A stretch of DNA of 45,895 nucleotides from Candidatus Saccharimonadota bacterium (GTDB taxonomy: Bacteria; Patescibacteriota; Saccharimonadia; Saccharimonadales; JAGPDM01). The stretch lies in NCBI GenBank assembly GCA_018057585.1, contig JAGPDM010000003.1, forward strand, positions 1 to 45,895, written 5' to 3'. A program made the translations under genes and the position numbers. Positions 10,287 through 45,895 of this stretch are shown piece by piece. The notes under the pieces are model-generated. The model was not told the origin of the DNA. It saw only the letters and a program-made list of their open reading frames with translations, and ran no database searches. Position 1 is the first letter of the stretch. Every line of letters starts with the position of its first letter.

Positions 10287-10775
10287 ATGATTGTACTATT
10301 TATGATCCTGCTTATTGTAATTACTGTGCCATTTCTGATTGGCGGGCTTTTAGGTGCAGTTTGGGTTCCGGCATTTTCTGAAGATACGACAGCTATTTTG
10401 AAACACCTAAAACTTAGACCTGGAATGACTCTGTACGAATTCGGCTGCGGCGATGGCAGATTTCTAAGAAAAGCATCCAAGTACAAAGTAAACTCAGTCG
10501 GATATGAAGTTAATCCCTACCTATGCAAGTTAGCTCAGATTAGATCAATCCATAATAAGAACACGAGGATCAAACAGGCTAACGCTTGGAATAAGTCATT
10601 TGCAGAGGCTGATGTTGTCTTTACGTTTTTAATGCCTAAGTTTATGGAGAAATTTGGTACTAAAATGCAGAGGGAATTAAAGTCTGGCTCAATTGTCGTT
10701 AGTTACATATTCGAGATACCAAACATGGAGCATTATCGGCACGCCAACAACAGCTACTTCTACAAAATTAAGTAA
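10287..10775 (+). CDS. membrane-anchored SAM-dependent methyltransferase, class I
   Basis: This 162-residue protein has an N-terminal hydrophobic segment (residues 1-26) and then a compact Rossmann methyltransferase domain. SAM-binding motif I is EFGCGDGRF (residues 51-59), followed by GYEVNPYLC, where the acidic residue would bind the ribose. The domain is short and ends soon after motif IV-like ADVVFTFLMP, so the substrate-binding part is minimal. Similar small proteins occur widely in CPR genomes and have no known substrate. Confidence 0.75.
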   Translation: MIVLFMILLIVITVPFLIGGLLGAVWVPAFSEDTTAILKHLKLRPGMTLYEFGCGDGRFLRKASKYKVNSVGYEVNPYLCKLAQIRSIHNKNTRIKQANAWNKSFAEADVVFTFLMPKFMEKFGTKMQRELKSGSIVVSYIFEIPNMEHYRHANNSYFYKIK

Positions 10776-13990: not shown

Positions 13991-14380
13991 TAATGTGGTT
14001 TTTACAAACCTGCCGAATCCTTTCTTTTGAAAAGAAACAAACTAATGACAATTGCGCCGACAAGTGTCGCAAGCTCCTGGACTATCGTCGCTCCTGAGAT
14101 GTTCGTTGTTATGCACTACAACGGTCTAGACTACTCACTTAGCTAAAGCTAAGTTCAAACAAGCCTAGCCCTTGAGCTGTAGAGATAACACTCACATATC
14201 AGGAAGCTCCTCCTTATGCCCAGACTGAAGGAAGATAATAAATCCCCTCTGGTAGGATTTGGAATTAAAATTGTCGTGAGATTAGGTCATAAGCCATATT
14301 TATATCTGTTGTGTATTGACAAATCCTTCCTATATATATATTAGCTTTTCGCATTGGTGAAAGATGGTTTTTTGACAAAC
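13991..14380 (+). ncRNA. candidate structured RNA, copy A (about 380 nt, family not recognised)
   Basis: This stretch aligns with 45156-45568. Shared parts in order: a closing stem AAACC/GGTTT (14005-14009 with 14365-14369); a small hairpin (14021-14037); a stem-loop TGACAATTG/CAAGTGTCG with loop CGCCGA (14046-14069); a long interrupted hairpin from TCCTGAGAT (14092-14100) to ATATCAGGA (14196-14204); the segment TTATGCCCAGA (14214-14224); hairpin AAATCC/GGATTT with loop CCTCTGGTA (14240-14260); hairpin CTTTTC/GAAAG; and the tail GTTTTTTGACAAAC. Stems are preserved while their bases differ from copy B. No ORF fits. Known large RNAs (tmRNA, RNase P, SRP, 6S) do not match. Confidence 0.65.
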
Positions 14381-14401
14381 ACGAGAAGTTTTAATTCAAG
14401 G

Positions 14402-14449
14402 CGAGACTTTGGGTTAAATAATGTTTAATTTAAATTGAAGTCTCGTTTT
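14402..14449 (+). terminator. hairpin after structured RNA A (terminator or attenuator)
   Basis: CGAGACTT (14402-14409) pairs with AAGTCTCG (14438-14445) around a 28-nt AT-rich loop and is followed by TTTT. It lies between the RNA and the small ORF at 14515. Copy B has a corresponding but different hairpin at 45581-45638. Confidence 0.6.
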
Positions 14450-14514: not shown

Positions 14515-14784
14515 ATGCCAGATTATCCACACCAGTTTGCTGGTCACAGTGGAAGATTCAGGCGAGTTAAGACGCCTAGGGATGTGCCCTGGAGCGAAGA
14601 GTATGCTTGGAGGTTTGACTCTAATTCCGGTCAACTGACAGCACTCGACGCAATCAAGACATCTGGTAGGCCGACCTTCACCATTGTGTATGACCCCACT
14701 GGTACCTATTACGCCAGCGCAAAGCCACAAACGCTTCCTGCTGCGAGAAAGCACAACTGTCCTAATTGTACATGCACCGACTGA
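14515..14784 (+). CDS. small Cys-tailed protein behind structured RNA A
   Basis: The protein has 89 residues from ATG 14515; a GTG at 14452 would add 21 residues that overlap the hairpin region. No clear Shine-Dalgarno precedes either start. The sequence is polar, rich in Arg, Pro and aromatic residues, with FTIVYDPTGTYYAS near the middle and a C-terminal CPNCTC motif that may bind metal or form disulfides. GC content is visibly higher than in neighbouring genes. No family is recognised, and it is not similar to the ORF behind RNA copy B. Confidence 0.45.
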   Translation: MPDYPHQFAGHSGRFRRVKTPRDVPWSEEYAWRFDSNSGQLTALDAIKTSGRPTFTIVYDPTGTYYASAKPQTLPAARKHNCPNCTCTD

Positions 14785-15060
14785 GCTGAGGTCTTCTCAG
14801 AACATTCGGCATCGACAACTGGAACCGAAAGCAAAACCGAGGGCTCGAGGGCGCTAAGACAGACCGGTAGCTTGATTGCACACTCCGTCTTTTTCTCTCT
14901 TGCCTCGGTCGCTTCGACATACCTACCTCTTTTTTTGCCTCCGTTTTCTTCGGCCACTTTTTTTGTCCCTGTTTTCTTCTCGTGTTTGTTTTTATTTTCT
15001 TAGTTTATTTAACGATTTGTTACATTCATATAATATATAGACTTTTGTTTGACTTTATCC
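14785..15060. other. intergenic, pyrimidine-rich tract on the plus strand
   Basis: No convincing gene. From about 14880 to 15005 the plus strand is strongly pyrimidine-rich, with T runs of 5-7. An open frame on the minus strand (14709-14957) is Lys/Glu/Arg-rich simply because of this purine bias. The tract ends just before the murA promoter. Confidence 0.5.
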
Positions 15061-45155: not shown

Positions 45156-45568
45156 AATGTTTTTTGAAAAACACAAACTCTAGTGTTCTTCTGAACGAAG
45201 AACTGTTAAATGCTACTTGCGCCGACAAGTAGCACAACCGGCTGGGCTATCCCTCGTCTTGATTAGTGAATGTTATTAACACAATGGATGCAACAACTCC
45301 CTATGGTCGGCCTAAAGGCTGAGTTGAATCCTAGTATTGTGTCAATAACATTCACTAATCAGGAGCTCGGTCTTTTATGCCCAGAGGAAAGTAAGTTAAC
45401 AAATCCCCGTTGGTAGGATTTGGATTTAATTAATAATCTGCTACAAGCAGATTATGTATATGCTCGGAATTTATTTGTTTCAAGTTGAATTATTTACAAA
45501 TATATTGCTAAGTAGTATGATTAGTGCAGTTTTTCTCTCGTGAGAGTGAAGGATGTTTTTTGACAAAC
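45156..45568 (+). ncRNA. candidate structured RNA, copy B (about 390 nt, family not recognised)
   Basis: This copy aligns with 13991-14380. Elements in order: closing stem GAAAAACA/TGTTTTTT; hairpin GTTCTTC/GAAGAAC (45185-45203); TGCTACTTG/CAAGTAGCA with loop CGCCGA (45211-45234); a long hairpin whose outer 17 bp (45261-45277 with 45344-45360) are perfect; CTGGGC/GCCCAG across its base; AAATCC/GGATTT with loop CCGTTGGTA (45401-45421); hairpin ATAATCTGC/GCAGATTAT; hairpin CTCTC/GAGAG; and the tail GTTTTTTGACAAAC. The stem bases differ from copy A but still pair, while the loops CGCCGA and TGGTA are kept. Confidence 0.7.
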
Positions 45569-45580
45569 AGAACTTTTATT

Positions 45581-45638
45581 AACATGGCGAGACTAGAAAT
45601 TATATTACTAAAATCTAGTTTCTAGCCTCGCCATGTTT
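45581..45638 (+). terminator. strong hairpin after structured RNA B (terminator or attenuator)
   Basis: AACATGGCGAG (45581-45591) pairs with CTCGCCATGTT (45627-45637), with inner TAGAAA/TTTCTA (45594-45599 with 45619-45624), then TTT overlaps the end. It sits at the same place relative to the RNA as 14402-14449 in copy A but has a different stem. Confidence 0.65.
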
Positions 45639-45718: not shown

Positions 45719-45895
45719 ATGCCCGCCACAACCCACAAACTAGGCACAGTCAATGCAGGAATCCACGCAGCGTGCACAGCGCAGCGCATCAAAGCCCACC
45801 GAAAGGCTTTCGTTAGCCTCTATAGGCAGACACCAGACTCGATTCTCGCTATCGAGATGGCCATCACCCGCTGGTGGATGATGCTCCGCCAGAAT
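45719..45895 (+). CDS. start of an unknown ORF behind structured RNA B, cut by window edge
   Basis: ATG 45719 is preceded by AAAGGAGGACACA, the strongest ribosome site in the window, and the frame stays open for 59 codons to the edge. The visible protein starts MPATTHKLGTVNAG and continues with a basic helical stretch (QRIKAHRKAFVSLYRQ) and EMAITRWWMMLRQN. GC content is clearly above that of recA and other neighbours. GTCC and GGAC flank the ribosome site and could fold over it. No family is recognised from this fragment. Confidence 0.6.
   Translation, partial: MPATTHKLGTVNAGIHAACTAQRIKAHRKAFVSLYRQTPDSILAIEMAITRWWMMLRQN

What the first reader, a model, noticed from the sequence alone, without database searches (positions are those of the whole stretch)
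13991..14449. Large structured RNA, copy A, upstream of a small GC-richer ORF
Aligned with 45156-45638, this region keeps loop sequences (CGCCGA, the TGCCCAGA strand, CC-x2-TGGTAGGATTTGG) while stems change on both sides: TGACAATTG/CAAGTGTCG here against TGCTACTTG/CAAGTAGCA in copy B. The closing stem AAACC/GGTTT here corresponds to AAACA/TGTTT there. Preserved loops with compensated stems are the signature of a functional folded RNA. The order RNA, hairpin, ORF occurs in both places. I cannot match it to tmRNA, RNase P, SRP, 6S, group I/II introns or the common riboswitches.
Basis: partly seen in the sequence, partly recalled or inferred. Interest (0 to 1): 0.87.

Follow-up and report, generated by a model that had tools for sequence, protein, structure and literature searches.

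The report
Dispersed foldable repeat behind genes
The folded stretch is real, but it is one of about twenty copies of a large self-complementary repeat scattered through this tiny bacterial genome and its relatives, mostly right behind genes; it behaves more like a spreading palindromic DNA repeat than like a dedicated RNA molecule.

Summary
The structure is real. RNA1 (copy A, about 14021-14263) covaries strongly: 26 of 53 pairs changed on both sides, score 0.325 against 0.134 +/- 0.011 in shuffles. Rfam has no match. But RNA1 is not a two-copy leader of a small ORF. About 21 divergent copies lie in this 834-kb genome, plus about 9 of a homologous arm (RNA2) facing RNA1 3'-to-3'. The element is in at least 13 other genera of the order and nearly absent outside it. 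It has sharp ends, sits mostly 0-60 nt behind stop codons, and two loci share one internal insertion, so it is copied as a unit. Stems show no strand preference (G-U:A-C 57:73; tRNAs 18:1). Best fit: a large BIME/REP-like, non-autonomous palindromic repeat acting as DNA; no mobiliser found. The 'hairpin + ORF' is a separate unit: promoter, long-range terminal stem, palindrome, small GC-rich orphan ORF and, in 7 of 12 units (not A or B), a canonical type-I hammerhead. Five other genomes have a small orphan ORF followed by a hammerhead, an association already described for prokaryotes. A 3'-UTR RNA role remains open.

The parts
14021..14263 (+). RNA1 repeat, copy A (hairpin a, hairpin b, long irregular rod, hairpin c)
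   Evidence: alignment of 15 own copies, covariance model R1 (230 bits, hit 14021-14277), similarity between copies starts and ends near these limits
14021..14037 (+). hairpin a (TTTCTTTTGAAAAGAAA)
   Evidence: direct sequence; present with other sequences in most copies and in G072
14046..14069 (+). hairpin b (TGACAATTG-CGCCGA-CAAGTGTCG)
   Evidence: helix 1: 5 of 10 pairs with double changes
14077..14082 (+). 5' strand of the base stem of the rod (CTGGAC), pairs with 14218-14223 (GCCCAG)
   Evidence: helix 2; CTGGGC/GCCCAG in this genome corresponds to TTGGGC/GCCCAA in G072
14090..14204 (+). rod: long irregular hairpin with conserved internal loops
   Evidence: helices 3-4: 17 of 31 pairs with double changes
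14218..14223 (+). 3' strand of the base stem of the rod (GCCCAG)
   Evidence: helix 2
14240..14260 (+). hairpin c (AAATCC-CCTCTGGTA-GGATTT)
   Evidence: helix 5: 4 of 7 pairs with double changes
14316..14344 (+). sigma-70-like promoter TTGACA-N17-TATTAG of the small-ORF unit
   Evidence: sequence; similar promoters precede most other units
14374..14392 (+). 5' strand of the terminal stem of small-ORF unit A
   Evidence: GACAAACACGAGAAGTTTT complements 14972-14989; other units have their own matching pair
14515..14784 (+). small GC-rich orphan ORF (89 aa from ATG)
   Evidence: no Pfam family above cut-off
14972..14989 (+). 3' strand of the terminal stem of unit A; no hammerhead follows here
45185..45424 (+). 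RNA1 repeat, copy B
   Evidence: R1 hit 45186-45438, 230 bits; fold z -8.4
45562..45577 (+). 5' strand of the terminal stem of small-ORF unit B; its partner lies in contig C10, followed by an inverted RNA1 copy (C10a)
   Evidence: contigs C11 and C10 overlap by 127 bases; joined sequence
45583..45635 (+). palindrome of unit B
45719..45895 (+). small GC-rich ORF of unit B (158 aa, runs on into C10)

Best explanation
Copy A is one copy of a large (about 240-280 bp per arm) quasi-palindromic, interspersed, non-autonomous repeat family of this order, organised like a BIME: single arms (RNA1) or two homologous arms in inverted orientation (RNA1 -> <- RNA2). Shown: copy number, fold with covariation, sharp ends, preference for positions right behind stop codons, inverted pairs, and a shared internal insertion in two copies. 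Inferred: hairpins a/b and the rod are read as single-stranded or extruded DNA by an unidentified transposase or nuclease, which copies the unit into gene-end spacers; some copies are then transcribed as 3' UTRs of the gene in front. The small GC-rich ORF behind copies A and B belongs to a different element, a hammerhead-type small-ORF unit.
For: 28 blastn pieces and 32 model hits in the own genome; about 21 RNA1 and 9 RNA2 after joining contigs, nearly all RNA2 convergent with an RNA1. Same element in 24 of 392 other order genomes in a five-candidate look, 18 hits in G072, 11 in G110, 9 in G035; outside the order only three weak hits in the phylum sample. Convergent pairs also in G072 (L144, L148). 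Similarity between copies starts at hairpin a (never more than 42 nt upstream) and ends at the model end, running on in a minority of pairs, mostly where an RNA2 arm follows. The C24 and C29 copies share the same ~77-nt insertion inside the rod with unrelated flanks. Gene ends within 60 nt: 31 3' against 8 5' in relatives (p = 3e-4), 15 against 2 in the own genome (p = 0.002). No strand asymmetry: G-U:A-C 57:73 against tRNA 18:1; fold z-scores own RNA1 -3.87 (+) and -3.75 (-), RNA2 -4.78 and -4.94. Location and inverted pairing match REP biology as described in PMC3733652 and PMC2817692.
Against: No cognate transposase: no Y1_Tnp or RVT_1 hit in the own genome, which is only 68.5% complete, and no IS110 hit in ten genomes. 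RAYT-type genes in relatives are flanked by their own short palindromes, not by RNA1. No target-site duplication or empty site was shown. Single copies prefer the sense orientation behind the gene, 24:8 (p = 0.007), which an RNA role would also predict. In 40 relative copies the + strand folds slightly better against its shuffles (mean dz -0.67, p = 0.017). Neutral decay of old copies would also remove a wobble asymmetry.
Confidence: 0.6

Rival explanations
1. Sense-strand 3'-UTR RNA element: the arm is transcribed with the gene in front and folds to stabilise or process the mRNA 3' end; inverted pairs serve two convergent genes.
For: Single copies lie sense to the gene in front in 24 of 32 cases, often starting within 0-30 nt of the stop; hammerheads lie directly 5' of RNA2 or RNA1 in 7 places; in relatives the + strand z-score is slightly better.
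Against: No G-U excess on the sense strand (57:73, tRNA control 18:1); antisense and promoter-side copies exist, including A and B themselves; no U-tract terminator seen; within-genome homogeneity points to spread.
Confidence: 0.23
2. Stand-alone large non-coding RNA of the GOLLD/ROOL/OLE type with a small ORF partner.
For: Size, conserved loops, covariation, no Rfam match.
Against: About 21 copies per genome, both strands equally structured, only 3 copies followed by the ORF unit, and ORF units exist without RNA1 upstream.
Confidence: 0.07
3. The compensatory changes are made by mutation itself (template switching that perfects palindromes), not by selection for a fold.
For: Long near-perfect arms; rods nearly identical between loci while flanking hairpins differ (C10b and C65, 95% over 182 bp), as expected of conversion tracts.
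Against: Internal loops and a U-G mismatch (columns 79/198, 14 of 15 copies) are kept, and unpaired motifs persist in other families; pure palindrome correction would remove them.
Confidence: 0.08

Closest known systems
REP/BIME (GTAG- and CGTC-tagged repetitive extragenic palindromes; PMC3733652, PMC2817692)
   Same: Interspersed palindromes, inverted pairs, mostly downstream of coding regions, lineage-specific sequence, probably non-autonomous
   Different: Arms are 240-280 nt with hairpins and a rod, against 20-40 bp; about 20 rather than >100 copies; no conserved GTAG/CGTC tag; no RAYT flanked by it
Prokaryotic hammerhead ribozymes beside small orphan ORFs (review PMC6155905)
   Same: The small-ORF unit next to RNA1: type-I hammerhead behind a small, non-conserved ORF
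   Different: Here seven in one genome, each after a long-range terminal stem and directly 5' of RNA2 or RNA1; A and B have lost or lack the hammerhead
MITE-like non-autonomous elements (general knowledge)
   Same: Discrete copied units, inverted arms, gene-free
   Different: No short fixed terminal inverted repeat and no target duplication shown; the structure of the arms is conserved more than their sequence

Membership tests
REP/BIME | interspersed palindromes predominantly downstream of coding regions | tested here: met
   gene ends within 60 nt are 3' ends 31:8 (relatives) and 15:2 (own)
REP/BIME | units in alternating (inverted) orientation | tested here: met
   RNA1/RNA2 convergent in nearly all RNA2 cases and in G072; single arms also occur
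REP/BIME | 20-40 bp units with unpaired GTAG or CGTC tag | tested here: not met
   240-280 nt arms; no conserved tag in A2 or A4
REP/BIME | cognate RAYT gene flanked by the repeat | tested here: not met
   no Y1_Tnp in own genome; RAYT-type genes of relatives flanked by other palindromes
Known Rfam RNA family | match above gathering score | tested here: not met
Functional structured RNA (one strand) | covariation beyond shuffles | tested here: met
Functional structured RNA (one strand) | wobble pairs favoured on the transcribed strand | tested here: not met
   57:73 against 18:1 in tRNAs
Functional structured RNA (one strand) | transcript with defined ends | not testable with these tools
   no RNA-seq held
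Type-I hammerhead (neighbouring units) | CUGAUGA, stem II, GAAA, NUH cleavage site, stems I and III | tested here: met
   12 of 12 sequences fit; RF00008 39 bits, E 1.4e-6 for C25, below gathering 48.5
Type-I hammerhead (neighbouring units) | self-cleavage | not testable with these tools
   needs in-vitro transcription
Retroelement (retrozyme/group II type) | reverse transcriptase available | tested here: not met
   no RVT_1 in own genome, 68.5% complete
Integron attC array | RYYYAAC/GTTRRRY boxes and integron integrase | not tested
   boxes only looked for by eye, not found; integrase not searched

The most novel reading that the evidence does not exclude
The arms and the hammerhead-ended small-ORF units form one mobile system of this lineage: transcripts of the units are cut by the hammerhead directly in front of RNA2/RNA1, and the structured arm is recognised as nucleic-acid structure by a still unknown enzyme that inserts copies behind stop codons.
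Probability: 0.12. Interest if true: 0.8.

Novelty: new variant of a known kind. Interest (0 to 1): 0.5.

Why it matters
If right, a lineage with sub-megabase genomes carries an undescribed family of very large structured repeats behind its genes, with no known mobiliser. It also gives a worked case in which textbook covariation does not prove an RNA: a simple wobble-asymmetry test with tRNAs as control separates the two readings.

Tried and rejected
Rfam at gathering and relaxed thresholds (no family for RNA1). Near-exact motif search in 60 relatives (only own genome): the element is too divergent for motif searches; the covariance model was needed. ATG in TTATGCCCAGA as a conserved start codon: reading frames differ between copies (5 to 41 codons), rejected by reading the copies. 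RAYT as mobiliser: Y1_Tnp genes present in 11 of 25 model-positive against 71 of 368 model-negative genomes, but those examined are flanked by other palindromes, so rejected as cognate. IS110 bridge RNA: no transposase. Reverse transcriptase: none. RNA1 as leader of the ORF: contradicted by copies and units that occur apart. Literature searches for hammerheads in Saccharibacteria, REPs in Patescibacteria and structured ncRNAs in CPR: no papers.

Full report
What was checked first. Copies A and B align as described, with loops kept and stems exchanged. Rfam gives nothing for copy A even at E <= 5 except one chance microRNA match. The own genome (G000, 834 kb, 67 contigs, 68.5% complete) holds 28 blastn pieces similar to copy A and 32 matches of a covariance model. 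So the two copies in the window are part of a family. I read the assembly by stretches; four small contigs are withheld as N. Contigs that overlap by 127 or 122 bases were joined.

Anatomy. An arm called RNA1 (copy A: about 14021-14263) has hairpin a, hairpin b, a long irregular rod closed by CTGGGC/GCCCAG, and hairpin c. On 15 copies 26 of 53 pairs have changes on both sides; the covariation score is 0.325 against 0.134 +/- 0.011 for shuffles and at most 0.076 for slid structures. A homologous arm, RNA2, has its own sequence and the same plan. There are about 21 RNA1 and 9 RNA2 in the genome, and nearly all RNA2 face an RNA1 3'-to-3' with roughly 60-170 nt between them. Copy A has z = -2.5 and copy B z = -8.4 as folded RNA.

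Distribution. The model finds 24 of 392 other genomes of the same order in a shallow look; some of these are weak or cover only the rod. A deeper look at 14 of them confirms matches in all, with 18 in G072, 11 in G110 and 9 in G035. The CTGGGC/GCCCAG pairing is TTGGGC/GCCCAA in G072, so pairing is kept across families. Outside the order only three weak matches turned up in the phylum sample.

It is copied as a unit. Similarity between copies begins at hairpin a, never more than 42 nt upstream, and ends at the model end, running on in a minority of pairs, mostly where an RNA2 arm follows. Two copies (C24, C29) share one ~77-nt insertion in the rod although their flanks differ. Gene ends within 60 nt are 3' ends 31:8 in relatives and 15:2 in the own genome. 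Often the element starts a few bases behind a stop codon. Single copies lie sense to the gene in front 24:8. Copies A and B are exceptions: they lie beyond the 5' ends of genes on the opposite strand, which I read as glyA and recA.

RNA or DNA? If an RNA were selected on one strand, deviations from Watson-Crick pairs should be G-U far more often than A-C. In tRNAs of this genome they are 18:1. In the repeat they are 14:35 (own RNA1), 12:12 (own RNA2), 17:10 (G072), 14:16 (G110), in all 57:73, Fisher p = 3e-5 against tRNA. Fold z-scores are equal on both strands in the own genome and differ slightly in relatives. This argues for pairing at the DNA level, or for decayed copies of anything; it does not exclude an RNA role for some copies.

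The neighbouring unit. The hairpin and ORF of the finding are a second element. Twelve such units were found, some incomplete at contig ends: sigma-70-like promoter, leader of the type TTTTTCAC..GTGAAGGATNGTTTTTTGACARRCAG, palindrome, GC-rich small ORF, and a 3' strand complementary to the leader's end. The terminal strands differ between units but match within each. In seven units a hammerhead follows, each directly 5' of RNA2 or RNA1. Rfam Hammerhead_3 scores 39 bits, E 1.4e-6, for the C25 copy, below its gathering score of 48.5, so default scans miss it; the C63 copy was not listed even at E <= 5. The same order, small orphan ORF then hammerhead, occurs in five other genomes. That prokaryotic hammerheads flank small non-conserved ORFs is already in the literature (PMC6155905). 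Pfam knows none of nine such proteins above its cut-offs. Units A and B have no hammerhead.

Mobiliser. None found: no Y1_Tnp or RVT_1 in the incomplete own genome, no IS110 in ten genomes. RAYT-type genes in relatives carry their own short flanking palindromes.

Verdict. A large BIME/REP-like quasi-palindromic repeat family of this order, new as a variant of a known kind, acting most likely at the DNA level (0.6). A 3'-UTR RNA role is the main rival (0.23).

Noticed in passing
G000 contigs C17:396+, C25:802+, C56:253-, C58:778+, C60:17958-, C63:9635+, C67:11060+: Seven canonical type-I hammerhead ribozymes behind small GC-rich orphan ORFs; Rfam default thresholds miss them.
   Followed up: yes
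L160, L161, L162, L164, L165: Same anatomy (small orphan ORF, mostly GC-richer than its flanks, then hammerhead) in a Gottesmanbacteria contig and four other genomes of the phylum.
   Followed up: partly
window 14374-14392 / 14972-14989; joined C11-C10 for unit B: Each small-ORF unit has its own long-range complementary ends; sequences differ between units but match within a unit.
   Followed up: partly
L177, L181, L182, L185 and others: RAYT-type Y1 transposase genes of relatives flanked by short perfect palindromes such as GCTACAAGGATTATCCTTGTAGC, unrelated to RNA1.
   Followed up: partly
C25 ORF (unit at 137+) against C67 ORF (unit at 10374+): Weakly similar small proteins by eye; the C25 version carries an in-frame TAA and looks decayed.
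   Followed up: no
C10b (C10:14029-14210) and C65:1-182: Rods 95% identical while hairpins a and b differ: conversion or modular exchange between copies.
   Followed up: no
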